Source of the DNA: a virus
DNA length: 36,426 bases
Strand: one strand, 5' to 3'
IMG/VR virus record: IMGVR_UViG_3300030329_003538
Span: 1-36,426 of that record
The notes below the pieces were generated by a model. That model was not told where the DNA came from. It did not search any database and saw only the letters and a list, made by a program, of their open reading frames with translations. Shown here piece after piece: positions 6,218-30,442 of the stretch. The position numbers and the translations under genes were made by a program. Positions within the stretch are counted from its first letter, which is position 1. Each line of letters opens with the position of its first letter.

Positions 6218-6946
6218 CTATAGTATTTTTTCCATTCCTGCCGGATTAAAGTCTCCGTGGAATCCAAAAGATCCGTATGTGGGTAGCACTCGCCTGTCGT
6301 AATTGCCCAATTCTTTTATCGGGTGCTCTACGGAAAATTTATACGCTAACTCTGAAGGGGCGAACTTAACGCCCCTGTTTACCATGTTGTAGTAATTGAA
6401 TACGCAAATGTTTAGGTCTTCATTCTTGTGGAAGATTTCTAGATTAAAACAAGAGTCTATAAATCGCTTGCTCCTTATGGAAAACCCGCCGTTTCCTACT
6501 ACATTGGGAAACCACTTAACTTTATCCTGACACATATCACTTGTTCTTAAAATGTGTTCTGGCCAAGGTGCTCCTATATAGTCGTATTCAAGGAAAGCGT
6601 CTGTCCATTTGCTTTGATCTATTATTGTAGAATCTGACTGAACATTTAAACAAAACTCAGTTTTGACACCCTCCTGTAGTTTCTTTAAGAATACATTTGA
6701 AAACTTTTCTCTTTCCGTGTCGTTCTTGAGGTCTGAGGAGATCGATTCACCGATAGATACGACTGTGATGTCGTTTTCTTGTATGAACTTGTCGTATCGT
6801 TTTGCTGATTCAGTATCTGTTATTATAATCTTACCACCAAACTCAACCCTATCAATACAATTCTGCATAGAGTTCACTGAATTTCTAGAGTGCTCATTGT
6901 CACCCCAAAACAGTGAGAGCAACGTGACATCATTTAGTTTAAGCAT
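6218..6946 (-). CDS. DUF5672-type glycosyltransferase
   Basis: 242 aa. The diagnostic string is YIGAPWP followed by NVVGNGGFSIRSKRFID, then NEDLNICVFNYY and FGFHG near the C-terminus. This is the pattern of DUF5672 proteins, putative GT-A transferases found in phages and in bacterial capsule or flagellar glycosylation loci. The VQSDSTI segment may stand in for the metal-binding loop. The start overlaps the upstream intein-bearing glycosyltransferase by 8 nt, so the two are probably co-translated. Substrate unknown. Confidence 0.82.
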   Translation of the reverse strand: MLKLNDVTLLSLFWGDNEHSRNSVNSMQNCIDRVEFGGKIIITDTESAKRYDKFIQENDITVVSIGESISSDLKNDTEREKFSNVFLKKLQEGVKTEFCLNVQSDSTIIDQSKWTDAFLEYDYIGAPWPEHILRTSDMCQDKVKWFPNVVGNGGFSIRSKRFIDSCFNLEIFHKNEDLNICVFNYYNMVNRGVKFAPSELAYKFSVEHPIKELGNYDRRVLPTYGSFGFHGDFNPAGMEKIL

Positions 6947-9692
6947 TTTTCAACTGCTTCATTCTATTGATTCTGGTTTCTTCCCACTTGTTTCTACGAT
7001 CACATAATCCTCTTAGATTATTGTATGCATCTTGTAAACTAAAAGGTTGATGCATATTAGGATTATCAAACGCCGCTGAAGACTCATTGAAATACATACC
7101 TCCAGTCATTGACGTGGTGGTTTTATATGTCAGATCTTTAGTGAGTCTCATTTCAAAGAACGTCCCTAGTTTTTCTGGTTCACAGAGCACCTTGGCGATT
7201 AACCACCTTGCTAAATCTCCATATGGTACATCTTTTGGAAGGTCTTGTGGAAGTTCTTCTGGTTGGTGTATGCGAGGTGGAGCACCCCATGTTTTCTCTA
7301 TTGGTAGGGACTCAAAGCTATCAAAATAGTCTTCCCATTGCTTGCCGCTTAGATGCCACTGGAAATGTTTCTCAAAGTTTTCTCTAGTCCGTTCACCCTC
7401 TTTTGCTCTATCCTCATCCGTTTTGTCTTCAAAGAAGGAGCGGAAAAATCCTGCGGCAGCATCGTTGTCTGGGACTGCACGTAAACAACCTGTCTCTAGC
7501 TCCTTATACAAGGCTGCTGGTTTAAGAGGATACCCTTCCAGTTTTCTAATCTCACTCTCCATAGCAGAGTAGTCAGTGCCGCACACTGGTATTCCACAAG
7601 CCGCAGCCTCTACATACGGAAGCCCAAAACCTTCACAGTTGGCATACTGAGTATAAAGGTCGAACAGGTTTACGATAGAAGAGAGGTCTTCGTATGACGC
7701 CCCGTTCTTTACGTTAGATAGGGTCGCACACCAGTTTCCGGTAAACGGAGATTGTGCTACAGCACCCTTAAACAGCGAAGGAAATGGCTTGTTAGTTTCG
7801 TTACAAATGTATGTAAAGAGAACATGTGACGAAAGCTCATTTTCTTGTAGGAGTTCGGGGATGTTCCACCCCAAGTCTGGGTAGCTAGTGTGGCAGTAGA
7901 GATAGTAATCTTTACTCTTGGCTTGGTCTAGGAACTTTTTAAAGGCTATAAAGAGGTCTGGGTACAACTTGCGGCGCTGGTTACGCATAACCGTGCCTAT
8001 AATTTTGTATTTTGGATCTATTCCAAACTTTTTCTTGTGGGCAATTTTGTCTTCTACTGGATGGTAGGCGGGGTGGGCTGACGGTGGAGCACTTCCTAAG
8101 TAGTTAATCTTTCCTCCTGATTGATCCGTCAGAACACCACCCGCCCAATCCGAGTATGTAAAACAGGCATCTGCACCGGCATATGTTGCAACCCACTGTC
8201 TAGCCTGTGGTCTTGCGTCTACAGTGGGCATGACGCAGTTATGTACTGCACAATGGGTAATAAAAGAGTGATCCTCTTCCACCTCTATGTCATATACTTT
8301 CACTTCGTCTTCGTAAGACTCTATGTGTGTCACAGGCATTAAGAAATAGCCATCCTTGATCATTACTCTAGTAAAATCTTTTTTGGAGCTTTCTGTATTA
8401 GACGAAAGTTTACTAATAAGCTCCTTAGAGAAATCTGAACACTTATGACCACTCAGCCTGATCGAATATCCTTCTTGTTTTCTTGATCCATTTAGTCTAA
8501 AACAGTATCCCAGAGACCTTCCTATGTCAGCCACCTGTCTAGCTAGAGTTTTTGACTTGCTAAACATCTCTATAGACGGCGTGTTGTGGTTAGTTCTAGT
8601 CACACAGCCATCGCCAGAAAAATATCCATCAAGTAGTATTTTAGCTTGTTTTTTATTCAGGTTTTTGTAACATAATGGGAGAATTTTCAATCCATCCTGA
8701 TCATAAAATTTACTAAATCTTTCTACTAAATGCCTTCCGTAAAATCTTAATGTTGTTTTGTTTCCATCTACCTTTTTGTCTCCATTTTCACTCTTAAAAT
8801 ATTCTTCTACTCTCTTTATGGTATCTGATTCGTCACTATGGAAATAAAAAGATATTCTGTATTTTTCTCTGGCGGATCCATCTGCTATAAAATGACCATT
8901 AATCCATAAATCTTCATCATTGCAGTCAATTCCGTGTCCCAATTCCATTATTGGCAACATTAAATAATCACCAATTGTTAAGTCGGAAGATGGTATAAAA
9001 TCTTTTAATGCAGTGTCGATAGAATCTATTTTTCTATGATACCTTCTGGTTTCGTTGTTCCAAGTTCTTTTTTGTTTTTTTGTAACTAAAACTTCATGAT
9101 CTGATGTACAAACCAGAGGTTCAGCCATTCCTTCTGCCTTGATTTTTACCATTAAACCTTTGTGAACGTGAGAGCTTGCTTTGTTTACTTTTCTCCTCCT
9201 GTTTTGGTGTGTTGCCACCTTTTCACCATTTAGATGTCTGTCCATGTAGCTTTCTATAGGTTGCGCATATCCAAAATCGGTTACTACTGGAGTTCCCGCT
9301 GGAAAACACCACTTAAAGTAGGGCCGGAAAGGAGACCTCTCTGCAAAATCTAACATCCAAAAGTCGCGTATGTCACATACGACATCTGGTAGAAAATCTA
9401 AACACACATGTTCAAATATCCACTCTCCAAACTGATTTGTACCTTTTGAGTCATATGCCTGTAGTTCTTCCTGTGAGGCTTTTGGTTCACAGTCTCTATT
9501 AGGCATAACCCCGTAATACTTCCACGGTATATTTGCTGCTCGCGGGTCGTTACGTTGCCCATAGGATGCCATTTCTGCAATTTCATACTTGCCAGTAGAG
9601 TGCAAGTAATTGAGAATTTCTCGTGTATATGTGGCATATCCGGTATTTAAAAATGTAGCTTCGCTACAGAACAGTATGCGCTTTTTCTGCAT
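6939..9692 (-). CDS. GT4-like glycosyltransferase interrupted by an intein
   Basis: 917-aa precursor from ATG 9692, which follows the ssb stop by 1 nt and has AAGGA 5-6 nt upstream. The host protein (exteins) is about 560 aa: residues 1-128 (MQKKRILFCSEATFLNTGY, GT-B N-half) and about 486-917. The C-half carries GTVMRNQRRKLYPDLF and the donor signature CEGFGLPYVEAAACGIPV. A 357-aa in-frame intein begins at Cys129 after YFKW and ends HCAVHN before CVMPTVDARPQ. A C-terminal tail of over 150 residues follows the GT domain. Splicing would join FKW to CVMPTVD. Inteins usually sit in DNA-metabolism genes, so this host is unusual. Confidence 0.9.
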   Translation of the reverse strand: MQKKRILFCSEATFLNTGYATYTREILNYLHSTGKYEIAEMASYGQRNDPRAANIPWKYYGVMPNRDCEPKASQEELQAYDSKGTNQFGEWIFEHVCLDFLPDVVCDIRDFWMLDFAERSPFRPYFKWCFPAGTPVVTDFGYAQPIESYMDRHLNGEKVATHQNRRRKVNKASSHVHKGLMVKIKAEGMAEPLVCTSDHEVLVTKKQKRTWNNETRRYHRKIDSIDTALKDFIPSSDLTIGDYLMLPIMELGHGIDCNDEDLWINGHFIADGSAREKYRISFYFHSDESDTIKRVEEYFKSENGDKKVDGNKTTLRFYGRHLVERFSKFYDQDGLKILPLCYKNLNKKQAKILLDGYFSGDGCVTRTNHNTPSIEMFSKSKTLARQVADIGRSLGYCFRLNGSRKQEGYSIRLSGHKCSDFSKELISKLSSNTESSKKDFTRVMIKDGYFLMPVTHIESYEDEVKVYDIEVEEDHSFITHCAVHNCVMPTVDARPQARQWVATYAGADACFTYSDWAGGVLTDQSGGKINYLGSAPPSAHPAYHPVEDKIAHKKKFGIDPKYKIIGTVMRNQRRKLYPDLFIAFKKFLDQAKSKDYYLYCHTSYPDLGWNIPELLQENELSSHVLFTYICNETNKPFPSLFKGAVAQSPFTGNWCATLSNVKNGASYEDLSSIVNLFDLYTQYANCEGFGLPYVEAAACGIPVCGTDYSAMESEIRKLEGYPLKPAALYKELETGCLRAVPDNDAAAGFFRSFFEDKTDEDRAKEGERTRENFEKHFQWHLSGKQWEDYFDSFESLPIEKTWGAPPRIHQPEELPQDLPKDVPYGDLARWLIAKVLCEPEKLGTFFEMRLTKDLTYKTTTSMTGGMYFNESSAAFDNPNMHQPFSLQDAYNNLRGLCDRRNKWEETRINRMKQLKNA
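8238..9308 (-). mobile_element. Cys-type intein with LAGLIDADG endonuclease, in glycosyltransferase
   Basis: 357 aa in frame inside the glycosyltransferase. Block A: CFPAGTPVVTDFGYAQPIES with nucleophile Cys1. Block B: LVCTSDHEVLV with the T-x2-H pair. Block F: VKVYDIEVEEDHSFI. Block G: HCAVHN, with Cys as the +1 residue. The complete canonical residue set suggests active class 1 splicing. The central part has two LAGLIDADG-like helices, INGHFIADGS and LLDGYFSGDGCV, both keeping the acidic catalytic residue, so a homing endonuclease is probably intact. The boundaries follow from the junction residues and were checked at codon level at both ends. Confidence 0.93.
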
Positions 9693-9693
9693 G

Positions 9694-10005
9694 TTAGTCC
9701 TTTTCGGGTTGGCAAATATCAAATTCATTAACTCGAAAGACGATAGATCCATCTTCTTCCGTTGCATTTCGAGCAGAACAATACACAGTCATTTTTGTGC
9801 CTCTGTCCACTAGCTTTTCTATGGTTTCAGCGCCGGTATGCCATGCCTCTAGGTTAATATAGGTTGGTATCCTGGTTTTTTCACCAGTCGCCTTAGACCT
9901 CCTATAAGTATAGGATACAAGGGTAAATTCCACAACACTGACTCCCCCTTCGACAGATAATTCAGGGTCATCAACTACAAAACCCGTAAAAGTACAGACA
10001 TTCAT
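9694..10005 (-). CDS. ssb: Single-stranded DNA-binding protein (SSB)
   Basis: 103 aa from ATG 10005, which has AGGA just upstream; a longer frame to 10056 lacks this. The OB-fold pattern of bacterial SSB is clear: MNVCTFTGFVVDDPELS, VVEFTLVSYTYRR, YINLEAWHTGAETIEKLV, GTKMTVYCSAR, VFRVNEFDI. It is short: the acidic C-terminal tail of cellular SSB is reduced to CQPEKD, which lacks the terminal DDIPF-like hook. It would coat ssDNA at the phage fork. It is preceded by a 144-nt leader with a promoter and a palindrome, one of two such leaders here, so its expression may be reset at this point. Confidence 0.85.
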   Translation of the reverse strand: MNVCTFTGFVVDDPELSVEGGVSVVEFTLVSYTYRRSKATGEKTRIPTYINLEAWHTGAETIEKLVDRGTKMTVYCSARNATEEDGSIVFRVNEFDICQPEKD

Positions 10006-10058
10006 TCCTGCCCCCTCAATAGTGTGCAATTTGAAAAGCGATTGGAGTATGATCATGA

Positions 10059-10089
10059 ACTACGGACTAACCGTAATACCGTCTTGAAC
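10059..10089 (-). repeat. 31-bp palindromic leader element, copy 2 (ssb)
   Basis: On the plus strand this reads ACTACGG-ACTAA-CCGTAAT followed by ACCGTCTTGAAC. It matches about 26 of 31 positions of the element at 15328-15358. The arms form a 6-7 bp stem with one imperfect pair and a 5-nt loop. It lies in the transcribed leader of ssb, between the promoter at 10121-10149 and the start codon at 10005. It is a candidate operator or RNA regulatory hairpin. There is no U-run after it, so a simple terminator is unlikely. Confidence 0.65.
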
Positions 10090-10120
10090 CCCAACTCGCT
10101 GTAATATTTAACAACACCCT

Positions 10121-10149
10121 ATTATAGTCTGAGAACTCAATTTTTCCAA
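10121..10149 (-). promoter_or_regulatory. Sigma70-like promoter for ssb and downstream genes
   Basis: Reading on the minus strand, TTGGAA (10149-10144), a 17-nt spacer, then TATAAT (10126-10121). The -10 is a perfect consensus hexamer and the -35 matches 4 of 6 positions of TTGACA. It begins right after the polymerase fragment ending at 10150, in one of the few real intergenic gaps. Transcription would start near 10113-10115 and produce a leader of about 110 nt holding the palindromic element. Confidence 0.6.
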
Positions 10150-11313
10150 TTAAATTTCGTAAATTTTTTCAATAATGAGAGAATTATCCCCTCTCTTTAC
10201 ATCCCCGCAGAAAAGCAGGTTATTTCCTTCATATAGCATATACTCGTATTTCTTTCGAGCCTCTGGAAATACGACGACACTATCAAGTATACATGTTTCA
10301 TCTTCAATTGTTAAAAAGGACATTAGTTGCCCTGGGTTTTTGCCGTTCTTTGTCTTGACGCTGTTTATGCGAACAATGTTGCCTGCAACACATAGGTTTT
10401 TACCATGCTTCCCATCGACGATTTCCTTGCACGTCGTGGTAGCCGCCGAAGTGTCTGCCGCATCAATTCTAGCAAGAGATACTGGACAACCCAGAAACTT
10501 GATTTCTTGATCGATAATCCACGATGGATCGTCGTCTAGACTAAACGGTGGATCGTCAATCATGTCTAGCTCGTTTTGTATAACCTGACTACGAGCCTTG
10601 GTGCTTGTTCCACCGCCCTCTTTTTTTGTTGGCTGTAAAGCCGTGAGGCAGTCTTTAAGGTTCTGCCACCCTACATTAGAGGTGTGATGGTTAATCGCCC
10701 ATTCCTGTTCCTTTTTTGTTAGAATGCGGAATATTTCGTACTCATACAGTGCTTTATTTCTAGATACTCCAGTTGATTTTGTGCTAAAGAAACCAATAGA
10801 CGCCAAAGCTTTAAATGAGGTAGCATTGATTTTTGGAGACAAAAACATTAGCACGTCTAGCCATGTAAAGTCTTTAGACTTCTTGCCGGTCTCCGATTCT
10901 ACCTCCTCAAGAATGGAGATAACTTTATCTCCAGATACTCCAGTCAACGACTTGACATCTTTAATACCAAAGTAAATATCTTTACCAAGTATGTCAAACT
11001 TTGTGCTAAATCTGGTAAGGTTTGGTATCTTTACTTCGATATCAAACAGTTTAGCTTCAGATACCAGTTCGTATACTTCTTGGTGCGGGTCTTGTTTGTC
11101 AGCAGCATGGTACAGGTAAGACAGGAAAAACTCTTTAGTATGATTAGCTTTATACCACGCTGCCATGTAAGCATCTTTAGCGTATGCTACACTGTGAGAA
11201 TTAGATACGACCATATTGTTTCCGTAAAATATATGGTCCTCTGAATCTACCTCTATGTCCATACAGGTTTTCAGTCCAGCTTTTTCAATGCTGATAATTT
11301 TTGCTTTACGCAT
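10150..11313 (-). CDS. dnaE: DNA polymerase III alpha, C-terminal fragment with split-intein C-half
   Basis: 387 aa. Residues 1-38 (MRKAKIISIEKAG ... NNMVVSN) are the C-terminal half of a split intein. Polymerase sequence begins with SHSVAYAKDAYMAAWYKANH, the motif after FNK in E. coli DnaE (FNKSHSAAYALVSYQTLW). The finger/helix-hairpin-helix region follows, then IKFLGCPVSLARIDAAD, and an OB domain (NLCVAGNIVRINSVKTKNGK to LLFCGDVKRG) at the C-terminus. ATG 11313 has GGAG 7 nt upstream and lies 43 nt inside the homing endonuclease gene. Trans-splicing with the 12200-13015 product would restore FNK-SHS. The fragment is probably useless without splicing. Confidence 0.92.
   Translation of the reverse strand: MRKAKIISIEKAGLKTCMDIEVDSEDHIFYGNNMVVSNSHSVAYAKDAYMAAWYKANHTKEFFLSYLYHAADKQDPHQEVYELVSEAKLFDIEVKIPNLTRFSTKFDILGKDIYFGIKDVKSLTGVSGDKVISILEEVESETGKKSKDFTWLDVLMFLSPKINATSFKALASIGFFSTKSTGVSRNKALYEYEIFRILTKKEQEWAINHHTSNVGWQNLKDCLTALQPTKKEGGGTSTKARSQVIQNELDMIDDPPFSLDDDPSWIIDQEIKFLGCPVSLARIDAADTSAATTTCKEIVDGKHGKNLCVAGNIVRINSVKTKNGKNPGQLMSFLTIEDETCILDSVVVFPEARKKYEYMLYEGNNLLFCGDVKRGDNSLIIEKIYEI
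11200..11313 (-). mobile_element. Split intein, C-terminal half (IntC, 38 aa)
   Basis: Starts MRKAKIISIEKAG. Block F is KTCMDIEVDSEDHIFYG with Asp at the usual position. Block G is NNMVVSN, ending in the cyclising Asn, with Ser as the +1 extein nucleophile. The penultimate residue is Ser rather than the common His. Length and start at its own ATG resemble known phage split-intein C-halves of 35-40 aa. Codon check: AAT at 11202-11200, then TCT CAC for Ser-His. Confidence 0.9.
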
Positions 11314-12164
11314 TCTTCATCTCCAAGTATATCTGATTCCCAAAATCTTATCAAATTTATATTATTATTGATGCAATATTCGTTCTTCCTTTTATCTCTA
11401 TAGTAATTTACCTTTTGTGTTTTTGTTTTTGGTCCGTTGTGGTATATCTTCGGATTAGAATGAAAATAATCTCCATCTACTTCTATGTAGATATCTAAAT
11501 CTTTTAAGTAGAAATCAAAACTCCAATATAATCTATGTTTTTCTTTTTCGTAACTTATACCTAAATCTTGTAAAAAGGATTCAAATCTTAAGGACGGCAA
11601 TGTGTCCGTGTGTTTAAATTTTCCGTTTTTAATCATTTCAAGAGTGTTTGCTCTAAATTTTTTCTTATTTTCTTCTGAGTGCTTACACCCCGTATGACCA
11701 TGTACTTTTCTTTTTTTTGCAGCTTCACTCTGTTTTTTCTTGGTTTCTGTAGAAACCGTTCTGTTTGACATTTTTTGGGATACGCTCATTATAGATGGAG
11801 ATGTCTCTTTTGTCAATGATAAATTCCAAGGTTTTTTGCCAAACATTGGGTTCCCCGAACCCTTTCTTGTTTTCTTGGCCTTTTCGGCCCAGTCTAGTAA
11901 ACCTTTATTTCTACCACATGCCATTTTCCTATACGCTATATTTGATGATTTTGTTACAATGTCAAGCGTCTTGCCGCAAATACCACAAGGGCATTTGATT
12001 TTATTATCAAAATAGTCATTTAAGGTAACGTCATGTTCATCTTCTAGGTGTTCTTTAAAGTAGTTGGATTTATATGCCCCCATTCTTCTTCGATCTTTTG
12101 TTATTTCATTAATATCTTTACCACATAGCTTGCACGCTTTCCATTCTTCTTTTGGTATAATCAT
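11271..12164 (-). CDS. Vsr-like homing endonuclease between split-intein halves
   Basis: 297 aa. N-terminal zinc-finger-like motifs: CKLC ... HLEDEH (about residues 15-45) and CPCGICGKTL. Then NUMOD3-like DNA-binding repeats: GSGNPMFGKKPWN and HSEENKKKFR. The C-terminal nuclease domain (about 190-290) reads WSFDFYLKDLDIYIEVDGDY, FHSNP and INNNINLIRFWESDI, the Vsr/PD-(D/E)XK-like core with Asp, Glu and His. It has its own strong SD, AGGAGG, 7 nt before ATG 12164, and overlaps the IntC gene by 43 nt. This placement, split-intein halves flanking a Vsr-related nuclease, is the published fractured-gene arrangement. It probably cleaves intein-less dnaE alleles; the target is untested. Confidence 0.88.
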   Translation of the reverse strand: MIIPKEEWKACKLCGKDINEITKDRRRMGAYKSNYFKEHLEDEHDVTLNDYFDNKIKCPCGICGKTLDIVTKSSNIAYRKMACGRNKGLLDWAEKAKKTRKGSGNPMFGKKPWNLSLTKETSPSIMSVSQKMSNRTVSTETKKKQSEAAKKRKVHGHTGCKHSEENKKKFRANTLEMIKNGKFKHTDTLPSLRFESFLQDLGISYEKEKHRLYWSFDFYLKDLDIYIEVDGDYFHSNPKIYHNGPKTKTQKVNYYRDKRKNEYCINNNINLIRFWESDILGDEECVKQKLSALKKLD

Positions 12165-12199
12165 TAGTAAGCCTCCTGTTAAATTTAATATAGCTCATA

Positions 12200-13015
12200 C
12201 TAATTATTATACACAAAAATCTCAACATTGCCTTCGATTATTTCTTTCAGTGGGCGCATTTTTTTGTCAGCACATAAAAATTTATGATCCAGTGTGCATC
12301 TAATTGTGTCGCCGTCAGACGTTTGTACTTCATATATTTCCTTTTCTCCGCTATCTATTACATCTACTACATCAACGTAATGATCTTCTTCATCGTTTTT
12401 GGGTGCTAATACTTTATCTCCAGCCTTTATCTCGTGAAGAAGTTTAGGTCCGTTTGGAGTGTAGACAACTGTTTCTGGATCTAGACATTTATTAAATGCA
12501 TAGCGGGAAGATTTCTCAATCCAACTGAAGATAGCTTCAGCGGTTTCTTTGGTAACGATTCCTTTACTAGTCGCACCCTTTAGGAAAGCTTTCTTTACTT
12601 TCGCCATGAGATCGGCTTTTTTCTTACCAATAGCTTTACGTAGCTCGTCAGCTTCCTTTAGGTCGAATCCTGCTAACTTTTGGGCTATACGCATAGACTG
12701 CTCTTGATATACAAGGACGCCGTGAGTTGGTTTTAGGATTTCTTCTAAAGACTCGTGTAGGTATGTAATCTCATCACGTCCATGTTTTCTATCAACATAG
12801 TGCTGAGTCATCGACTTACCATCGGTAATGGCCTTGAGTGTTCCTGGTCTGATAATCGCTATTAAGGCCGATAGTTCTTCAAGGTTCGATGGGGCGACCT
12901 TCTTAGACCATGACTTACCTAAATTACTTTCAAGTTGGAATACACCTTTAGTGTAACCATTTTTAAACAAGTCCCAAGTCTTGCTGTCTTCCAAGTCAAT
13001 CTTAGACATACACAT
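12200..13015 (-). CDS. dnaE: DNA polymerase III alpha, middle fragment with split-intein N-half
   Basis: About 271 aa from ATG 13015 (ATG 13009 is an alternative; the frame continues to a TTG at 13039). Polymerase residues 1-176 match the DnaE fingers: NGYTKGVFQLES, ALIAIIRPG, YVDRKHGRDEITYLHESLE, GVLVYQEQSMRIAQ, LRKAIGKKKADLMAKVKKAF, ending SRYAFNK. The last 95 residues are IntN. It lacks the palm aspartates, which are in the separate 13672-15285 product. It overlaps the exonuclease gene by 14 nt. No strong SD is seen, so translation is probably coupled to the exonuclease gene. Confidence 0.9.
   Translation of the reverse strand: MCMSKIDLEDSKTWDLFKNGYTKGVFQLESNLGKSWSKKVAPSNLEELSALIAIIRPGTLKAITDGKSMTQHYVDRKHGRDEITYLHESLEEILKPTHGVLVYQEQSMRIAQKLAGFDLKEADELRKAIGKKKADLMAKVKKAFLKGATSKGIVTKETAEAIFSWIEKSSRYAFNKCLDPETVVYTPNGPKLLHEIKAGDKVLAPKNDEEDHYVDVVDVIDSGEKEIYEVQTSDGDTIRCTLDHKFLCADKKMRPLKEIIEGNVEIFVYNN
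12203..12487 (-). mobile_element. Split intein, N-terminal half (IntN, 95 aa)
   Basis: Begins with Cys1 straight after FNK: CLDPETVVYTPNGPKLLHEI (block A), then GDKVLAP, and block B TIRCTLDHKFLC with T-x2-H. It ends IFVYNN at a TAG stop. There is no endonuclease domain. Together with the 38-aa IntC it makes a 133-aa mini-intein. The codon for Cys1 is TGT at 12487-12485. Confidence 0.92.
12206..12211 (-). promoter_or_regulatory. Possible -10 box ahead of the homing endonuclease gene
   Basis: A perfect TATAAT on the minus strand within the last codons of IntN, 42 nt before the endonuclease ATG. No convincing -35 is seen at 16-18 nt. Own control signals accompanying an inserted endonuclease gene are known for fractured loci, but in an AT-rich stretch this could be chance. 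Confidence 0.25.
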
Positions 13016-13679
13016 CACCGTTTGCAAAGGCTTTGTCAACTTTTAAATTACGGTATACAGCACGATGCGTTTTCATGAACTTGATCATGATATTCGCGGT
13101 GTCTTTAACGTCCTGAAGGGCATCGTGGGCGTTTTCAGTAGACATCCCCATTCTTTCACGCATAGAGTCCATGCTTATAGACTTCACATTAGGATCGCCC
13201 TCTGTCCACATAAATACATTATCCATAACGTCGATCTTGTAGACTGAGCTAAACAGCTTTTGACGTTTACGCTTGTCATCCCACGGTCCAAACTCTTGGC
13301 ACAACCTGTCTATGATAATCATGTCATAGCCAATGATGTTGAAGCCCGCAGGGATAGGAGCAAAGAAAGGTGTACCTTTCCAGTTATACTTGTCTACAAA
13401 CTGAGTAAACTTTTTCCATACGGTTTTCAAGTGTGGAGCTTTTGCGATACCCTCTCTGGTTTTACCTGTAACTTTTAGGGCACCTTCTTCGATTGGGCCT
13501 AAACCCTTCTTAACGGCCTTTTCATCGTCTACCTCTGCACGGATCTCGCTATTGAAAGACCCCTTCAGCTTAAAGTTCCTACCATCCAACGCTATAGCAG
13601 CCAACTGTGTAGGCTGACATGTGTTGGGGTCTCTACCGCCTGTTTCAAAGTCAAATACAATTATATCTCGGTTAGCCAT
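13002..13679 (-). CDS. DnaQ-like DEDDh 3'-5' exonuclease
   Basis: 225 aa starting MANRDIIVFDFETGGRDPN. Exo I is FDFETGG (Asp and Glu), Exo II is NIIGYDMIIIDRL (Asp) and Exo III is NAHDALQDVKDTANI (His and Asp), a full DEDDh set. It is therefore a likely active proofreading exonuclease for the fragmented Pol III, comparable to the epsilon subunit. Its ATG overlaps the stop of the N-terminal polymerase gene by 8 nt, and its end overlaps the middle polymerase gene, so it is wedged between two pieces of the enzyme it should serve. AGGA lies about 8 nt before the ATG. Confidence 0.88.
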   Translation of the reverse strand: MANRDIIVFDFETGGRDPNTCQPTQLAAIALDGRNFKLKGSFNSEIRAEVDDEKAVKKGLGPIEEGALKVTGKTREGIAKAPHLKTVWKKFTQFVDKYNWKGTPFFAPIPAGFNIIGYDMIIIDRLCQEFGPWDDKRKRQKLFSSVYKIDVMDNVFMWTEGDPNVKSISMDSMRERMGMSTENAHDALQDVKDTANIMIKFMKTHRAVYRNLKVDKAFANGDVYV

Positions 13680-15285
13680 TTATCAATTCCTCAACTTTCA
13701 TTATCTTGTCTAAAAGTGTTAGTCCAAGCACGTCAAACTTAACATGTCCTAGTGCTTCTAAATCTGCCATTTCAAGTCCCGCAATCTTTTCTCCACCGCT
13801 GCGTTGATTTACCATCGGGCAAACCTTTGGTAGAGGTTCTGCCGATATAACAACTCCAGCAGCATGCTTGCCTTGAGTTTTAAATGTCCCCTCTATCTCA
13901 ATTGCCTGTTTAAAGAATTCAGCGTAATCACCGTCAAGATCTCCGTTGTCATTAATGAAACAAAAATCACGAAGGTCGTCGGCGTTGTTGATCAATGCCC
14001 ATCTGATGATAGATCTATCTTCTTCGTCCATCTCTTGTAACTGGTCAGAAATTGCAGCTTCGTCAGGAATGGACTTGGTGATCTCGTTCATTTCGCTAAA
14101 GCTACACACGTCACTAATACGCAGCACTTCTTTTAAGGCGCTCCTACCTTGCAGCCTGCCAAATGTAAGCATCTGACTCACGTTATCTTTACCGTAAGTA
14201 TTTTTAAGATACTCAATGATATCATCACGTTTGTTAGCTGGAACATCCATGTCAATGTCTGGAAGTGAATCAGTGCGGGCTGCATTATAAAACCTTTCAA
14301 ATAATAAATCAAACTCAATTGGGTCAATCTGAGTAATTTCAATGAGGTAAGAAATCAGGCACCCAGCAGCAGACCCTCGACCCGGACCAGCTAGCCACCC
14401 CTGATTTGTTACATATCTAATAATATCCTGTACGATCAAAAAATATCCAAACAGTTTAGCTTGCTTGATTACATCAAACTCCATAGTAAATCTGTCAAGA
14501 TATGTTTTCTTGTCCTCTTCTCTTTTTACCTTCCCGGTTTTATGTAGGAATTTTACCCACCCTTCGCGGCAAAGTTGTTTTAAATGTCCTTCTTCGGACT
14601 CACCCTCTGGGGTTGGGAACTTCGGAAGCATTGGCGGGTTAAGAATCTCATAATCTTCGCACAGCTTGTAGATTTCCTCTAAACATGACTCACCGTATTT
14701 ATCGTCGGGCATTTCTGCAAGAGACTTTAGATGAAATGTATCTTTTATGAAAAACTCTTCGTTTTTCTCTAGCTTGCCAGATCTCACAAGCGTATTAACC
14801 TTCGGTAGAGTCGTTTTCATGGCTGAACACAGCAGTATTCTATGAAGATGGGCGTGTTCACGCTCAATGTAATGAGAAGGTGACGTAAGTGGGTTTTGCT
14901 TGAATGTCAACCGCCTGTCACATGGAGAATCGCTATATTCGCCATCAGTAATGCAAATCAGGTTCCCTCTTTGACAAATCTCTTTCGTAATGTTAAGGTA
15001 CTCGTTACCCTCTGGACTTAAGGAAGACACAATCTCAATCAAATCAAACCACCCCTGCTTGTTTTTTGCAAACAGGATGTAATGGTCGAATGAGCAGCCA
15101 ATAATTGGTTTTATTCCACTATCCTTACAGGCTTTGTAGAACGACACCGCGCCTGATATCGACTTGTAGTCAGAGATTCCGCAGGCAACGTATCCATTCT
15201 CAACACATTTTTGGGATAGCTGTTTAGGCTTAGAGAAGCCCTTCAGCAACGAGTAGTGCGTGTAGTTACAAAGTGGGTATTTCAT
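13672..15285 (-). CDS. dnaE: DNA polymerase III alpha, N-terminal fragment (PHP and palm)
   Basis: 537 aa from ATG 15285, preceded by GAGAAAG; ATG 15306 is a possible earlier start without an SD. Residues 1-80 are PHP-like (YTHYSLLKG, GISDYKSISG, GIKPIIG), but the usual H-x-H-S metal motif is lost. The palm has GPGRGSAAGCLISYLI, PDIDMDVP (two catalytic Asp), QMLTFGRLQGRSALKEV, GKHAAGVVI and VKFDVLGL (third Asp). It ends LDKIMKVEELING, exactly before the variable linker that precedes GVFQLES in normal DnaE. Nothing conserved is missing between this piece and the next, so non-covalent reassembly with the spliced C-part is plausible. A palindromic element lies just upstream. Confidence 0.93.
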   Translation of the reverse strand: MKYPLCNYTHYSLLKGFSKPKQLSQKCVENGYVACGISDYKSISGAVSFYKACKDSGIKPIIGCSFDHYILFAKNKQGWFDLIEIVSSLSPEGNEYLNITKEICQRGNLICITDGEYSDSPCDRRLTFKQNPLTSPSHYIEREHAHLHRILLCSAMKTTLPKVNTLVRSGKLEKNEEFFIKDTFHLKSLAEMPDDKYGESCLEEIYKLCEDYEILNPPMLPKFPTPEGESEEGHLKQLCREGWVKFLHKTGKVKREEDKKTYLDRFTMEFDVIKQAKLFGYFLIVQDIIRYVTNQGWLAGPGRGSAAGCLISYLIEITQIDPIEFDLLFERFYNAARTDSLPDIDMDVPANKRDDIIEYLKNTYGKDNVSQMLTFGRLQGRSALKEVLRISDVCSFSEMNEITKSIPDEAAISDQLQEMDEEDRSIIRWALINNADDLRDFCFINDNGDLDGDYAEFFKQAIEIEGTFKTQGKHAAGVVISAEPLPKVCPMVNQRSGGEKIAGLEMADLEALGHVKFDVLGLTLLDKIMKVEELING

Positions 15286-15311
15286 ATTCTTTCTCAACAA
15301 AAACATAACAA

Positions 15312-15362
15312 CGTAGTATGAAACTAAACTACGGATTAACCGTAGTACCAGTTTGAACTACG
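15312..15362 (-). repeat. Palindromic leader element, copy 1, with four half-sites (dnaE N-part)
   Basis: The core 15328-15358 on the plus strand is ACTACGG-ATTAA-CCGTAGT followed by ACCAGTTTGAAC, a perfect 7-bp stem with a 5-nt loop. Around it are four hexamers in alternating orientation: CGTAGT 15312, ACTACG 15328, CGTAGT 15341, ACTACG 15357, spaced 16, 13 and 16 nt. It fills most of the 86-nt gap upstream of the polymerase gene. It may be an operator for a dimeric regulator or a switching pair of RNA hairpins. The core recurs at 10059-10089 before ssb. Confidence 0.68.
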
Positions 15363-15392
15363 AGGTTATGAGATCAATTCTTTCACAATTGT

Positions 15393-15731
15393 TTACTGCA
15401 ACATACGCTCTGATACAGTTTGATATTCTTCTAGTGTCAATCCAAGCCAATCCATCTTAGATACGGAGTGCCAATCAGAGAGGGCTTCATCGGCCTGCAT
15501 CTGCGTCCACTCTTTAGATAGTTTAATAAAAACTTCTACTTCCATTCTGTTTACAAAATCTGGATCTAGTATTCTTTTTAACATAAAGATGCTAGAGCGT
15601 ACCGAATAGTTACAGGTAGTTAATGCAACGCCCTCAAAAAGATCCTCAATGAGGCAAGCTGCATCTTCAATTTTTAAATACTTCGACATTATCTGTACAA
15701 TTTTATCCGCTTCGCCGGTGGTCGTAGGCAT
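15393..15731 (-). CDS. Hypothetical protein
   Basis: 112 aa, mostly alpha-helical in appearance, with no domain I recognise. ATG 15731 has AGGAG 6 nt upstream. It is the last gene before the polymerase leader, 12 nt downstream of the DUF1501 gene. There is no signal peptide, cysteine motif or membrane segment. Confidence 0.65.
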   Translation of the reverse strand: MPTTTGEADKIVQIMSKYLKIEDAACLIEDLFEGVALTTCNYSVRSSIFMLKRILDPDFVNRMEVEVFIKLSKEWTQMQADEALSDWHSVSKMDWLGLTLEEYQTVSERMLQ

Positions 15732-15743
15732 TCAATACTCCTT

Positions 15744-16973
15744 TTATAGTAATTCCTTAATTACACTGCCGCCGTTTGCCATCTTAATGGGTCTGCCGCT
15801 CTTAGACGTATGCTTTTTCTCTGTGTCGATTCCCAATGCCGACAAAGTTGTAGCCATCAAATCCGAAGCGGTGTACGACTTCCCATCAACTGTCTTTCCG
15901 TCAGGTGAGGTTTTTCCAATAGCCTGCCCCCCTTTGAATAGACCTCCGGAAACAAATGAGGACCACGTAGCAGCCCAATGGTCACGACCAGCATTTTGGT
16001 TGATACGAGGTGTGCGACCAAATTCCCCCATACATATTATAGCAGTATTTTGCCAAATGTCCAATCTTTTTAGGTCAAAAATCAGAGAATTTAGAACTTT
16101 ATCTAACTGTGGCAGTTTTGTTTGGAGGGTTTCATGCGTCATATTGTGCAAGTCCCAACCTCCGAAGCCAACTTCTACGAATGGGACTCCCTGTTGAATC
16201 AAACGCCGAGCCATAAGTGCTCCACGACCTAGACTTGTATTGCCGTATGCTTCAAGAACCTGTGCGGGTTCCTGTTCAATTTTAAGAGCATTCATCTGCG
16301 GACTTGTGTTCAGCTTAAAGGTTTTTTCAAGTAGCTTCTTGTGATCGCTTGGCATCTCCCCACGATTGCTTTTTATAAAATTATCCTCTATTACCGAAAG
16401 CATTCTAAGTCTGTTGACGTTTAGGTTGTCGCCCCCAAGATTTGGTACAGTTCCATTGCTACGAACAGAAAAGGGATTCCAAGCCGTCCCTAGAAACCCA
16501 CCACCGTGACTATTTGTGTCGATGGAGAAGAAAGCTGGAATTTCCAAACCTTTGTTTAGGGGTCCAAGCTCACTGGCAACAACCGATCCTATTGACGGGT
16601 GTACCATTCGAGGGTTGGGAGCAAAGCCCGTGTGCATCTTGTACCGGCCTCGCCCATGATCTGCCTCACGGGTGCTCATACTCCTAATAAGCGAGAAATC
16701 ACCCCCTCTCTGAGCGAGAAGTGGTAGGTGTTCTGAGATTTGGAAGTCACCAGTTGTGCTAATTGGCTTGAAAGGACCGCCCTCTTTGGTTCCCGGCTTC
16801 AAGTCCCACATGTCAATAGTAGGAGGACCGCCACCCAGCCAGATCAATATCGCTGCCTTTCGGTCTTTATGAAGTTTGGAATGATTATGTATAATCTGTT
16901 GACCAAATGTTAGCGAAGTACTGGCTAGGGTGGCTAGTCCTGTTGAATGTTGTATGAATTGTCTTCTGTTCAT
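15744..16973 (-). CDS. TAT-exported DUF1501 (alkaline phosphatase-like fold) protein, copy A
   Basis: 409 aa. The N-terminus NRRQFIQHSTGLATLASTS has twin arginines plus a hydrophobic stretch, a TAT-type signal. DUF1501 landmarks: IWLGGGPPTIDMWDLKPG, FGGWDLHNMTHE, CMGEFGRTPRINQNAGRDHW and GRPI near the end. DUF1501 proteins belong to the sulfatase/alkaline-phosphatase-like superfamily, occur mainly in Planctomycetota and relatives, and have no settled reaction. The length is usual for the family and no truncation is seen. It starts in an ATGA overlap with glf. It is unexpected in a phage; it may modify the host envelope or be an acquired host gene. Confidence 0.9.
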   Translation of the reverse strand: MNRRQFIQHSTGLATLASTSLTFGQQIIHNHSKLHKDRKAAILIWLGGGPPTIDMWDLKPGTKEGGPFKPISTTGDFQISEHLPLLAQRGGDFSLIRSMSTREADHGRGRYKMHTGFAPNPRMVHPSIGSVVASELGPLNKGLEIPAFFSIDTNSHGGGFLGTAWNPFSVRSNGTVPNLGGDNLNVNRLRMLSVIEDNFIKSNRGEMPSDHKKLLEKTFKLNTSPQMNALKIEQEPAQVLEAYGNTSLGRGALMARRLIQQGVPFVEVGFGGWDLHNMTHETLQTKLPQLDKVLNSLIFDLKRLDIWQNTAIICMGEFGRTPRINQNAGRDHWAATWSSFVSGGLFKGGQAIGKTSPDGKTVDGKSYTASDLMATTLSALGIDTEKKHTSKSGRPIKMANGGSVIKELL

Positions 16974-21499: not shown

Positions 21500-21515
21500 T
21501 AATACTATAGTATTA
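21500..21515. repeat. Perfect 16-bp palindrome at end of DUF1501 gene
   Basis: TAATACTATAGTATTA reads the same on both strands. It covers the stop codon region of the upstream DUF1501 gene (stop at 21505) and the start of the 46-nt gap before the membrane-protein gene. It may be an operator or the core of a weak promoter region; an AT-rich TATATATAAT follows at about 21481-21490 on the minus strand. Confidence 0.5.
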
Positions 21516-22743
21516 CCTGCCCGTCTCCATCTAGTAAGTATCGAGGTCTTCCGGCTTGGTCCATTCTCTGAATCTTAGCATCTATGCTAAAGTGGTCAAA
21601 CAAAGTTGCCGCTAGATCTATTGGACCAATCTTTTGATCGGTAGGGTAATACCCCTTATCGGCCTTGCCAATAACTCTACCGTGCTCATAATCGCCACCA
21701 GATAGAAGCATAGGTGTGATGGACGGCCAATGGTCGCGGCCAGAGTTAGCATTTAATCTAGTTCTACCAAATTCTCCTGTGACGACAAGCAGGACATCTT
21801 TACTCATGCCCATATTATAGATGTCATCAACAAATGCGGAAAGGGCTTTATCTATTGGTGGAACCCTCCCCTCAAGAGCCTTCTTTATGTTTCCATGCAT
21901 GTCCCAGCCACCATAATGGACCGTAACAAACTTGCTGCCAAACTGAGCTAACCGTCTAGCTAGAAGCATCTGGTCTCCGACTCCGCCCTTGCCATATCTT
22001 TCTCTTACCTTTTCGTCTTCTTGGTCTAGATCAAACGCATCTTTAGCGTTACCCAAGACGACATTGTAGGCTTGATCACCTATTTTTTCGAAAGAGTTAG
22101 CCTGATTAGAGAAAAACTTTCTCTTGCTATCAAAAAGACCTAATAGCTGTTTCCTATCCTTAAGTCTATCAATAGCGACCTTGGGGATCAGGTTTTCTTT
22201 GTTACTTGGGTCAAAGGGTTTATTAGCTCCACCAAGAAATGCTGGCTGCTCACCTTCGATTTTACCCTGTTTGACATAAGCTGGCATTCCATTTTTTGGA
22301 TGATTAGACCCAAAAACAGACGATATAATTGCTCCATGTCCAGGAAATTCTGAGTCAGCAGTCGTTTCCCTCTTAGGGTTGCGGTGACCCGTCATCATCC
22401 AGTGGGTGGCCTGTCTATGAGAAGAATCCCCATGTGAAAAAGAGTTTACGGCTGTTAAATTATCCCCTCTTTTGATCAAATTTTTAAACAATCCACCAAA
22501 TGCAAGCCCGTTGCTGTGAGTCACAACGTCACTAACAGATGAGTGTGTATCTGGAACGGGGTCAGTTGGAGCATGGAAAGTTTCAAACTGTGTAGGACCA
22601 CCACCCAGCCAAACCCAGACTACAGACTTATCATTTGAAGATATTGTATCCTCAGCAAAGATAGCGTCAGATAAAGACAAATAGCCTAAACCAAGTCCAC
22701 CAACTCTAATGAAATCTCTTCTGTTTGTTCGTATATCAAGCAT
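21505..22743 (-). CDS. TAT-exported DUF1501 (alkaline phosphatase-like fold) protein, copy B
   Basis: 412 aa; GGAG lies 8 nt before the ATG. The N-terminus TNRRDFIRVGGLGLGYLSLS is a twin-arginine signal. DUF1501 landmarks: VWVWLGGGPTQFETFHAP, MTGHRNPKRETT, VHYGGWDMHGN, VTGEFGRTRLNANSGRDHWP and GRPRYLLDGDGQVIL. It shares the family landmarks with the 15744-16973 product but differs strongly in most of its length, so this is a paralogue rather than a recent duplicate. The two bound the glycan island. Substrate unknown; a secreted metal-dependent hydrolase is inferred from the fold. Confidence 0.9.
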   Translation of the reverse strand: MLDIRTNRRDFIRVGGLGLGYLSLSDAIFAEDTISSNDKSVVWVWLGGGPTQFETFHAPTDPVPDTHSSVSDVVTHSNGLAFGGLFKNLIKRGDNLTAVNSFSHGDSSHRQATHWMMTGHRNPKRETTADSEFPGHGAIISSVFGSNHPKNGMPAYVKQGKIEGEQPAFLGGANKPFDPSNKENLIPKVAIDRLKDRKQLLGLFDSKRKFFSNQANSFEKIGDQAYNVVLGNAKDAFDLDQEDEKVRERYGKGGVGDQMLLARRLAQFGSKFVTVHYGGWDMHGNIKKALEGRVPPIDKALSAFVDDIYNMGMSKDVLLVVTGEFGRTRLNANSGRDHWPSITPMLLSGGDYEHGRVIGKADKGYYPTDQKIGPIDLAATLFDHFSIDAKIQRMDQAGRPRYLLDGDGQVIL

Positions 22744-27913: not shown

Positions 27914-28322
27914 TTTGATCTCTCCAATCTTCGTCTGAGTCTAGGTAGCTGAACTCTACGAGGGTTATTTCATTTAGCTCGCACCATTCTTTTTTAACAG
28001 CATCTCTTCTTTTATGCTTATAGAATCCAGCCTCGGTTTTATGAAAAAAGGGGCAAAATTCATAATGCTGTCTGCCGTGAACCTCAACACCTATCATAAC
28101 ACTCGGTATCAAAAAGTCAAGAAACAAAGCGGATTTTTTGCTGGGATTTCTAGACCCTGGTAATTTTACCTCTTCTAGTACGCTGTATCCTTTAAAGGAT
28201 TTGCGTAATATATCGCGTGCTCGCAAATGATAACTTGACCTTTTTCTTGTGTCGTCATTCCTAACGATGTACTTTTTAAGGTCTATCCGATATTCTCTGC
28301 CGTTTATACCTAAAACTTTCAT
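27897..28322 (-). CDS. Vsr/PD-(D/E)XK-like nuclease
   Basis: 141 aa. The nuclease core is FLDFLIPSVMIGVEVHGRQH, with Asp, Glu and His-Gly-x-Gln-His, then a basic helix KRRDAVKKEWCELNEI and LVEFSYLD. The pattern is like Vsr and DUF559-type endonucleases. It overlaps recA by 4 nt (ATGA) and the next gene by 17 nt, as a normal operon member would. It may be a recombination nuclease, or a stand-alone relative of the homing endonucleases next to RecA genes in some phages. Confidence 0.7.
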   Translation of the reverse strand: MKVLGINGREYRIDLKKYIVRNDDTRKRSSYHLRARDILRKSFKGYSVLEEVKLPGSRNPSKKSALFLDFLIPSVMIGVEVHGRQHYEFCPFFHKTEAGFYKHKRRDAVKKEWCELNEITLVEFSYLDSDEDWRDQIDCAR

Positions 28323-30442
28323 CTGATTTCTTTTATCTGATTGTGAATGAATTTTGTTATCGGCTCATTCTCGGTTAAGAAATCGGTCAATTTTTGAATA
28401 CCTTGGAATTTAAAGAATTTCTGTACGGCTTCTGGGTCTTCATGGTCCACACTGTTGGCTTTTAAGACATTTTTGATAACCGGGTCTTTGCAGTTGTCAA
28501 TTGCGGTTGTAATTTCATACCAAGCTCCAGATCTTTTGACCATGCTAAATTCATTAGCTAATTGTGCTATTTCTTGAGCTTCGTCAATACCAATACCATA
28601 CCTAATCCACCCTTCGGCTGTAGAATTTGGTGTGCCACCAGAGGCAGATGTCAATATTTTCCAATTTGCAACCTGCCCAATATGAGGTCCAGATTCATCA
28701 TTAGATTGTAACCACTTACCCCTATGGGTAATTTTCATTTTAGTGCCAGCTTGATACTGCACCATGTTTCCAGAGTCTTCCATCTTGGCTGGAGACCAAC
28801 GGCTACCGCCAGTGTTTGCGATATTATGCAGTATGAATATTAGTATTGCCTTAGTTCTTGAAACGTCGCCAGAAATTCTTTTCAGGAACATCGACATTAA
28901 TCTCGGCAGGTTATTTCTAACGCCGGTCCTGATTTCACCTTCTAGCTCCTCCTGGGGGACCATATTAGATACCGAATCAACAATAGCCACAAGGTCTGGA
29001 GTATTTTTAACATACATCTCTAGGGTGTTAAGATACATTTCTGCGGACACTAACGGCATCTCGTCGGTAGCTTGTACAATCTTTATCTTCTTGGTATCTA
29101 AACCCTTGATTCCTGTAAAGTTCTCCTTGGTCATACGCCCTTCAGTATTGAAATAGATGATGTTCTTACCGAGAGCTTGACATTTAGATGCGAAATAAAG
29201 AGCAGTGGTCGTGTTATGAGTCACTGTAAAATTGTCTGTGACATACAGGTGGTCTGCATGATCTACGGAGATACATTGACACTCTTCTTGTCTGACAATT
29301 TCTATTTTTTTAATAGTCCTACATAGATTTGGTTTGCTTCTACACTGATTAAATTGTTTACGCGATAGTTTAAACAGCTTGTTTATATCGTTGCCAGATA
29401 TATGTAATCTAAAAGATTTAAACTCCTTTCCGTTACATTTTGTGATTCTTTCTCGTGTTTTAGCTGTATAACCAAGAGACTGTAGAATTTCTGTAACGTG
29501 AACACTCAGAGCATATGATACGGTAGAATACTCAGCGTTTTTACCTGAATCATTATAACCGTCTGTGTCCATTAACCCTCTAATAAGTTCAAATCTATCC
29601 TCTACTGATGAATAAATGTATTCTTTTGGTATGAATTTTGTATGAGAATTAGAACCCATCAAGCCTAAAGCTCTTAGTTTATTTGTCAAGTCGTTAGTTT
29701 CACCTTCTAGTTTAACTATTGCATAATCGTATCTAGATTTATGATTGATGCTTAGATTATTGTGCTTGGCAAAACATTTGAAAGATTCTAAAATTTCTCC
29801 ATCTGAGGTTGTTATAATTGGCGTACCTTGAGACATTCCGCCGTCTCCAAGTAAGCAACCTAATATATATGGATCTATTGGTAGATTCTGCTTATTAAAC
29901 AATATAGGTTCACATAATGGAATCTTCCATTTTGGTCTATCGCTATAAAACAGGCCGTCTTTAATAATTTCAGATAGCGGGAGAACTGTCCAATCTTTAT
30001 GTCTACCGTGGTAATTTTTTGACACTTTCCATAGATGGTCAATGCCACACTCTGCGTAAGACTCATCGCTAAATGTAATTCGATATACGTCTTTTACGCC
30101 TTGAGGGAATACACCATCAACTTCCGCCGATCCTCCATTTGGAGTGCATACAATATCGCCTATCTTTATATCACCCATCTTTACGGGGCCAGACGGTGTG
30201 TATACTGTTGATGATATAGGTTGTTCTTTACCAGTTTTTGGATCTCCACCTATGATTACACAGTTTCCCTCTCTGATTCCGCCACCGAGGGCGATGTCTA
30301 GAGCAGGAGAAACGCTAATCTTTTGGAAGGATTCTAGCTTGTCAAGTACTTCCTCTCCACTCTCTACGATAGGTCCGTACTTTGAGATTATTTGATTGCT
30401 AGTATCGTCATCTGAAAATTTATTCACTTTCTTTTTCGCCAC
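28319..30442 (-). CDS. recA: RecA-family recombinase interrupted by a class 3 intein
   Basis: 707-aa precursor from GTG 30442, with GGAG 8 nt upstream. The exteins total 369 aa. The N-extein (1-72) ends GGDPKTGK and the C-extein starts TTTALYFASK, so the Walker A GDPKTGKTT is split at GK|T. Next come an Asp/Glu switch region (FNTEGRM), Walker B LVAIVDSVSNM, LPRLMSMFLKRI, ILIFILHNI with TGG, and a C-terminal domain. The family is RecA/UvsX-like; no further distinction is made. It would drive strand exchange and repair. The 338-aa intein makes activity depend on splicing. Confidence 0.92.
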   Translation of the reverse strand: MAKKKVNKFSDDDTSNQIISKYGPIVESGEEVLDKLESFQKISVSPALDIALGGGIREGNCVIIGGDPKTGKEQPISSTVYTPSGPVKMGDIKIGDIVCTPNGGSAEVDGVFPQGVKDVYRITFSDESYAECGIDHLWKVSKNYHGRHKDWTVLPLSEIIKDGLFYSDRPKWKIPLCEPILFNKQNLPIDPYILGCLLGDGGMSQGTPIITTSDGEILESFKCFAKHNNLSINHKSRYDYAIVKLEGETNDLTNKLRALGLMGSNSHTKFIPKEYIYSSVEDRFELIRGLMDTDGYNDSGKNAEYSTVSYALSVHVTEILQSLGYTAKTRERITKCNGKEFKSFRLHISGNDINKLFKLSRKQFNQCRSKPNLCRTIKKIEIVRQEECQCISVDHADHLYVTDNFTVTHNTTTALYFASKCQALGKNIIYFNTEGRMTKENFTGIKGLDTKKIKIVQATDEMPLVSAEMYLNTLEMYVKNTPDLVAIVDSVSNMVPQEELEGEIRTGVRNNLPRLMSMFLKRISGDVSRTKAILIFILHNIANTGGSRWSPAKMEDSGNMVQYQAGTKMKITHRGKWLQSNDESGPHIGQVANWKILTSASGGTPNSTAEGWIRYGIGIDEAQEIAQLANEFSMVKRSGAWYEITTAIDNCKDPVIKNVLKANSVDHEDPEAVQKFFKFQGIQKLTDFLTENEPITKFIHNQIKEIR
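29213..30226 (-). mobile_element. Class 3-type intein with LAGLIDADG endonuclease, in recA Walker A
   Basis: 338 aa, residues 73-410 of the precursor. The first residue is Glu, not Cys/Ser/Ala: EQPISSTVYTPSGPVKMGDI. The Trp-Cys-Thr signature of class 3 inteins is present: Trp in GIDHLWKV (block B, two after His), Cys in CQCISVDHADH (block F, in place of Asp), and Thr in TVTHN (block G). The +1 residue is Thr. Two LAGLIDADG motifs, ILGCLLGDGG and LIRGLMDTDGY, show a full endonuclease. Splicing would start at the block F Cys. Boundaries were checked at codon level: GAA at 30226 and AAC at 29215. Confidence 0.92.

What the first reader, a model, noticed from the sequence alone, without database searches (positions are those of the whole stretch)
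13002..15285. Second break in Pol III alpha with a proofreading exonuclease gene in the gap
The N-terminal piece ends LDKIMKVEELING just after VKFDVLGL, and the middle piece starts just before NGYTKGVFQLES. No conserved residue is lost and no intein is visible at this break. The gap is filled by a complete DEDDh exonuclease gene that overlaps both neighbours. The polymerase is thus three polypeptides in five translationally coupled genes, and the palm/fingers join must be non-covalent unless an unseen mechanism links them.
Basis: partly seen in the sequence, partly recalled or inferred. Interest (0 to 1): 0.82.

Follow-up and report, generated by a model that had tools for sequence, protein, structure and literature searches.

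The report
Phage polymerase split around its proofreader
In a large group of uncultured, mostly large viruses, the gene for the DNA-copying enzyme is naturally cut in two, with the gene for its error-correcting partner sitting in the cut, so the enzyme must be assembled from separate pieces instead of being made as one chain.

Summary
On the minus strand, a DnaE-type Pol III alpha gene stops at 13672, just after the last palm helix. A complete DEDDh exonuclease gene (13002-13679) follows, and the fingers half starts at ATG 13009. Both junctions are 8-nt start/stop overlaps. The break falls between E. coli alpha residues 574 and 586, a loop.

It is not a local accident. All 141 distinct viral loci where I could place the three genes have the order N-half | exonuclease | fingers-half; none is fused. 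In 32 of 32 records of 70-174 kb there is one palm and one fingers domain, so no second full-length DnaE was seen. The split sequences form one clade (support 100) against nine unsplit DnaEs. No intein, intron or constant frameshift geometry was found at this break. The halves are therefore most likely held together non-covalently, as in the split gp43 of Aeromonas phage 25. That step is inferred.

The other break (intein plus Vsr-like endonuclease, 11200-12487) is separate and rare in the clade. I found no earlier description of a C-family polymerase split here without an intein, but the paper library is partial. Verdict: a new, clade-wide variant of a known kind.

The parts
13672..15285 (-). 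N-terminal half of Pol III alpha (PHP, palm, thumb), about 537 aa; ORF opens at 15306 but ATG 15285 fits the family N-terminus (MxWFPLxNYTHY)
   Evidence: Pfam PF07733 8e-69, PHP 7e-18; model pLDDT 91 aligns with E. coli alpha residues 1-574, Z 29.5; palm acidic residues D350, D352, D525 invariant in 53 sequences
13672..13679 (-). first junction: ATGGCTAA, start of the exonuclease overlapping the stop of the N-half
   Evidence: sequence; the most frequent overlap in relatives is also 8 nt, 31 of 141
13002..13679 (-). DEDDh (DnaQ-like) 3'-5' exonuclease, 225 aa
   Evidence: RNase_T 8e-13; phrog_192 4e-24; D10, E12, D119, H185, D190 invariant in 52 relatives
13002..13009 (-). second junction: ATGTCTAA, start of the fingers half overlapping the stop of the exonuclease
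   Evidence: sequence; start position conserved in relatives
12488..13009 (-). first part of the fingers half of Pol III alpha (174 aa extein, to YAFNK)
   Evidence: PF17657 1.7e-49; contiguous with the C part in 115 of the 129 relatives where this could be judged
12200..12487 (-). N-terminal intein fragment (95 aa plus stop) at the end of the middle piece
   Evidence: TIGR01445 intein N-terminal splicing region 6.7e-10, over its cut-off
11271..12164 (-). free-standing homing endonuclease with a Vsr-like domain, between the two intein fragments
   Evidence: TIGR00632 vsr 3e-7 and PF03852 1.5e-4, both below their cut-offs; phrog homing/HNH endonuclease families to 1e-13
11200..11313 (-). C-terminal intein fragment (38 aa, ends ...VVSN before SHSVAY)
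   Evidence: sequence and homologous fragments in L002, L035, L174
10150..11199 (-). C-terminal part of the fingers half of Pol III alpha (349 aa, to the OB domain)
   Evidence: phrog_405 3e-26, NF005616 2e-22

Best explanation
This is the replicative polymerase core of a clade of uncultured tailed viruses. It is a C-family (DnaE-type) polymerase made as two separately translated halves, PHP+palm+thumb and fingers+OB, with its proofreading exonuclease encoded in the cut. The cut falls in a surface loop between the last palm helix and the first fingers helix, so both halves can fold alone and dock through the large palm/fingers interface without a peptide bond. The three start/stop-coupled genes are probably made in similar amounts from one mRNA, and the exonuclease acts as the epsilon-like proofreading subunit. 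Shown: gene order, conservation, intact active sites, loop position, absence of a second DnaE, absence of splicing signals. Inferred: docking without a bond, coupled translation, and the exonuclease's partnership with this polymerase. In the window and a few relatives a second, unrelated break is presumably closed by a split intein.
For: Same order in 141/141 distinct loci, none fused. One palm and one fingers domain in each of 32 records of 70-174 kb. N-half model (pLDDT 91) matches E. coli alpha 1-574 at Z 29.5; fingers-half model from relative L004 (pLDDT 90.7) matches 586-1073 at Z 22. Polymerase and exonuclease active-site residues invariant. Purifying selection on all pieces. Unsplit homologues join the same halves by a short linker in one ORF. 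Split sequences are one clade with support 100. Precedent: split gp43 of Aeromonas phage 25 co-purifies and is active; split NrdA of phage Aeh1 is fully functional (PMC2988022). Neighbouring genes are a replication module: SSB, DnaB, primase, RecA, dNMP kinase, RNR.
Against: No biochemistry. Distance correlations do not single out N and fingers halves as closest partners once lengths are matched (0.83 vs 0.79 and 0.82). The exonuclease has sometimes been exchanged without the polymerase (97% vs 73-75% identity), so a tight fit between them is not proven. All records are metagenomic; none was shown to be a complete genome.
Confidence: 0.85

Rival explanations
1. The halves are rejoined covalently by an unseen step: programmed frameshifting, translational bypass, RNA splicing, or trans-splicing by an unrecognised intein.
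For: Inteins, some split, occur at three other sites of this same gene in relatives (L174 and L150), so splicing is at home in it.
Against: The N-half ends about 7-14 residues after its last conserved helix and the fingers half starts just before its first one, leaving no room for intein fragments. Overlap sizes vary (-1 to -19) and 27 and 54 of the 141 loci carry more than 260 nt of other sequence before or after the exonuclease, so no constant frameshift geometry exists. No Rfam intron match, even with relaxed threshold. The exonuclease frame overlaps both neighbours.
Confidence: 0.04
2. The exonuclease is more than a neighbour: it is an obligate splint that clamps the two polymerase halves together, which is why it stays in the cut.
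For: It never leaves the cut in 141 loci, is present in one copy in each of 20 virus records searched, and is the most conserved of the three genes (mean column identity 74% vs 64% and 67%).
Against: Exonuclease genes have been swapped between lineages independently of both halves. In E. coli, epsilon binds the PHP domain and does not bridge palm and fingers (general knowledge). Staying in place may only reflect shared translation.
Confidence: 0.25
3. The polymerase pieces are decaying and the virus uses the host replicase.
For: Gene breakage is the classic mark of decay, and homing endonucleases have invaded the locus repeatedly.
Against: dN/dS 0.03-0.11, invariant active sites, and the same break across sequences that differ by nearly half of their residues.
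Confidence: 0.02
4. Sequencing or assembly artefact.
For: Single metagenomic contig.
Against: The same three reading frames occur in 141 distinct loci from many samples and in two contigs binned with bacterial genomes (L198, L199).
Confidence: 0.005

Closest known systems
Split family-B polymerase gp43A/gp43B of T4-like Aeromonas phages 25 and 44RR (PMC2988022)
   Same: A phage replicative polymerase encoded as two adjacent pieces with no splicing; in phage 25 another gene lies in the gap; the pieces co-purify and are active.
   Different: Different, unrelated polymerase family; the gap holds a seg homing endonuclease or untranslated sequence, not the proofreading exonuclease; reported in a few phages, not a whole clade.
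Split NrdA of phage Aeh1 (mobE insertion; PMC2988022)
   Same: Genes-in-pieces enzyme, functional without religation.
   Different: Ribonucleotide reductase; the inserted gene is the mobile endonuclease itself.
Split DnaE of cyanobacteria (trans-splicing inteins)
   Same: DnaE encoded by two genes.
   Different: Rejoined by an intein, at a site in the fingers; the break discussed here has no intein and lies elsewhere.
PolC of Gram-positive bacteria
   Same: C-family polymerase physically tied to a DEDDh exonuclease.
   Different: One polypeptide with the exonuclease inserted in the PHP domain; here the exonuclease is a separate gene at the palm/fingers boundary.
Unsplit phage DnaEs, e.g. Pseudomonas phage Y1, Streptomyces phage Sujidade, Chryseobacterium phage MA9V-3
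   Same: Homologous halves in the same order.
   Different: One ORF with a short linker at the break.
Tenacibaculum phage Larrie DnaE in two genes
   Same: A phage DnaE in two adjacent ORFs.
   Different: Break lies inside the palm just before LPDIDSDF, with intein-like ends and no exonuclease.

Membership tests
C-family (DnaE-type) DNA polymerase | Catalytic acidic residues of the palm | tested here: met
   D350, D352 (PDIDMD) and D525 (VKFDVLG) invariant in 53 sequences
C-family (DnaE-type) DNA polymerase | PHP + palm + fingers + OB domains in DnaE order | tested here: met
   Pfam and structure matches to E. coli alpha, 1-574 and 586-1073
C-family (DnaE-type) DNA polymerase | Polymerase activity | not testable with these tools
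   no biochemistry
DEDDh (DnaQ-like) exonuclease | D-x-E, D and H-x4-D catalytic residues | tested here: met
   D10, E12, D119, H185, D190 invariant; RNase_T 8e-13
Epsilon proofreading subunit of Pol III | Binds the alpha subunit | not testable with these tools
   only gene neighbourhood and co-inheritance
Genes-in-pieces phage enzymes (gp43 of phage 25, NrdA of Aeh1) | Relatives have the gene as one ORF | tested here: met
   unsplit phage and bacterial DnaEs
Genes-in-pieces phage enzymes (gp43 of phage 25, NrdA of Aeh1) | Split caused by a homing endonuclease gene at the break | tested here: not met
   the gene in the gap is an exonuclease; endonuclease-like genes accompany it only in some relatives
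Genes-in-pieces phage enzymes (gp43 of phage 25, NrdA of Aeh1) | Pieces assemble into an active enzyme | not testable with these tools
   inferred from conservation
Split-intein fractured gene | Intein fragments at the break | tested here: not met
   no intein signature at the palm/fingers break; met only at the second break, 11200-12487

The most novel reading that the evidence does not exclude
A C-family replicase that works as an obligate heterotrimer in which the proofreading exonuclease bridges and holds the two polymerase halves, so that polymerisation itself depends on the proofreader and synthesis without proofreading is structurally impossible.
Probability: 0.2. Interest if true: 0.8.

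Novelty: new variant of a known kind. Interest (0 to 1): 0.62.

Why it matters
Replicative polymerases are normally single chains or have inteins that restore one. A whole clade of viruses that keeps its only recognised DNA polymerase cut between palm and fingers shows that this interface can hold without a peptide bond, at least on evolutionary evidence. It gives a natural two-part C-family polymerase for biochemistry. The proofreader in the cut raises a testable question: does it couple polymerase assembly to proofreading? Annotation pipelines would also call these viruses' polymerases truncated.

Tried and rejected
Intron at the break: no Rfam match at E<=1 over 9600-16000. Second full DnaE: none in 32 large records. 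Constant frameshift site: rejected from variable overlaps and inserted genes. First gap table overstated some N-exo gaps (L008, L015, L172) because the match began before an upstream stop; recomputed. Bacteroides phage SJC03 exonuclease hit (30% identity) is not next to a polymerase. Aeromonas phage Gekk3-15 (DnaE annotated in fragments) and Serratia phage KKP 3709 (DnaE in several ORFs) looked like parallels; KKP 3709 is fragmented at other points, with no exonuclease in a cut, and Gekk3-15 was not pursued. T4-type major capsid search (PF07068) found nothing, but no control rang either, so it says nothing about the virus group. Length-matched distance correlations did not discriminate partners. 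No paper in the held open-access library describes this arrangement; absence there is weak evidence.

Full report
What is there. The window is a 36,426-bp virus record. On the minus strand, between two DUF1501 genes and sugar genes upstream and an SSB gene downstream, lies a DNA polymerase III alpha (DnaE) in pieces: N-half 15285-13672, exonuclease 13679-13002, middle piece 13009-12200, a Vsr-like homing endonuclease 12164-11271, and a C-terminal piece 11313-10150. The finding concerns the first break. The N-half stops seven residues after its last conserved helix segment (LLDKIMKV-EELING*), the exonuclease begins in the same 8 nt (ATGGCTAA), and its own stop overlaps the start of the middle piece (ATGTCTAA).

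Where the break falls. A profile of the N-half matches E. coli alpha up to residue 565 and a profile of the fingers half starts at 589. Predicted structures narrow this: the N-half of the window (pLDDT 91.1, pTM 0.87) aligns with E. coli alpha 1-574 (2hnh, Z 29.5, rmsd 2.7, 503 residues), and the fingers half of relative L004 (pLDDT 90.7) aligns with 586-1073 (5fku, Z 22.0). The break is therefore an 11-residue loop between palm and fingers. Both halves are predicted as confident folds on their own. The unbroken relative L004 was used for the fingers half because the window's own is interrupted by the intein.

Conservation. Three scans of IMG/VR gave 192 loci. After removing identical exonucleases, 141 distinct loci carry all three genes in the order N-half, exonuclease, fingers half; none is fused. 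In 115 of the 129 loci where it can be judged the fingers half is one uninterrupted ORF, so the exonuclease break is the general state and the intein break the exception. In 53 of 141 loci the three genes directly abut or overlap; in others extra sequence over 260 nt sits before (27) or after (54) the exonuclease. Inserted genes include Endonuclease VII/HNH-type nucleases, FkbM methyltransferases and glycosyltransferases; a more divergent subgroup has a conserved gene of about 75 codons of unknown function between N-half and exonuclease. In 32 of 32 records of 70-174 kb there is exactly one palm domain and one fingers domain.

Function retained. The palm acidic residues and the DEDDh residues of the exonuclease are invariant. 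dN/dS against the near relative L084 is 0.06 (N), 0.03 (exonuclease), 0.11 (middle) and 0.07 (C); dS is near or above saturation, so these are rough, and for relative L004 dS could not be estimated for two of the four pieces. The PHP metal-binding start does not match E. coli's own (H10 aligns to Y, D12 to H), which gives no support for a PHP nuclease; proofreading is then expected from the separate exonuclease (inference).

Origin. In a tree of 33 split polymerases and nine unsplit phage and bacterial DnaEs the split sequences form one clade with support 100 and a long stem; sampling of unsplit relatives is thin. In a spread sample of 60 of 1,293 phage records with this region, one alignment spans the junction in all but a few. 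Unsplit homologues join the halves by about 12-23 residues. The exonuclease has been exchanged between lineages: L168 and L158 share 97% identity in it but 73-75% in the polymerase halves. A plausible history, not shown, is invasion of the linker by a mobile gene followed by replacement with the exonuclease.

How it works. No intein fits at this break, no intron was found, and the geometry is too variable for a constant frameshift. The halves must then meet as separate chains. The precedent is the split gp43 of Aeromonas phage 25, whose pieces co-purify and are active, and the split NrdA of phage Aeh1, which is fully functional (PMC2988022). Start/stop overlaps suggest coupled translation. Whether the exonuclease also holds the halves together is open.

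The second break. 11200-12487 holds an N-terminal intein fragment, the homing endonuclease gene and a C-terminal intein fragment, inserted at FNK|SHS. It resembles published split-intein 'fractured genes' and, if the intein splices, joins the two fingers pieces. L174 shows how far this can go: split inteins with endonuclease genes at two sites plus the exonuclease break.

Novelty. I found no description of a C-family polymerase split at the palm/fingers boundary without an intein, in bacteria (PMC3919608, PMC12926913) or phages (PMC11348598); the library is open-access only. Natural split polymerases are known in family B, so this is a new variant of a known kind, notable for being fixed across a clade and for the proofreader in the cut.

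Noticed in passing
L174:748-7826: DnaE in eight genes: a split intein with endonuclease gene inside the palm (GPGRG|), the exonuclease break, a glycosyltransferase gene, and a second split intein with a Vsr-like endonuclease. The polymerase would need two protein trans-splicing events and one non-covalent join.
   Followed up: partly
L150:8688-11036: A continuous intein with an HNH-like endonuclease inserted after RPG in the fingers domain: a third intein site in the same polymerase family.
   Followed up: partly
L035:6376-6606 and 24 further loci: A conserved gene of about 75 codons of unknown function between the N-half and the exonuclease in a divergent subgroup.
   Followed up: no
window 6939-9767: A glycosyltransferase-like gene interrupted by a LAGLIDADG intein, an unusual host gene for an intein.
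   Followed up: no
window 28319-30442: A RecA-like recombinase with a LAGLIDADG domain inserted, probably an intein.
   Followed up: no
window 15744-16973 and 21505-22743: Two DUF1501 genes in a virus replication region.
   Followed up: no
L198 (contig VFHP01000007.1, 152,655 bp): The same split polymerase lies on a contig binned with a SAR202 bacterium whose own full-length DnaE is on another contig; a weak hint at a host. A second binned contig (L199, Flavobacteriales) points elsewhere.
   Followed up: partly
L195:5692-9272: Tenacibaculum phage Larrie DnaE is in two ORFs broken inside the palm, with what look like intein fragments at the ends and no endonuclease gene.
   Followed up: partly
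L168/L158 exonuclease genes: Exonuclease nearly identical (97%) between viruses whose polymerase halves are 73-75% identical: independent exchange of the proofreader.
   Followed up: partly
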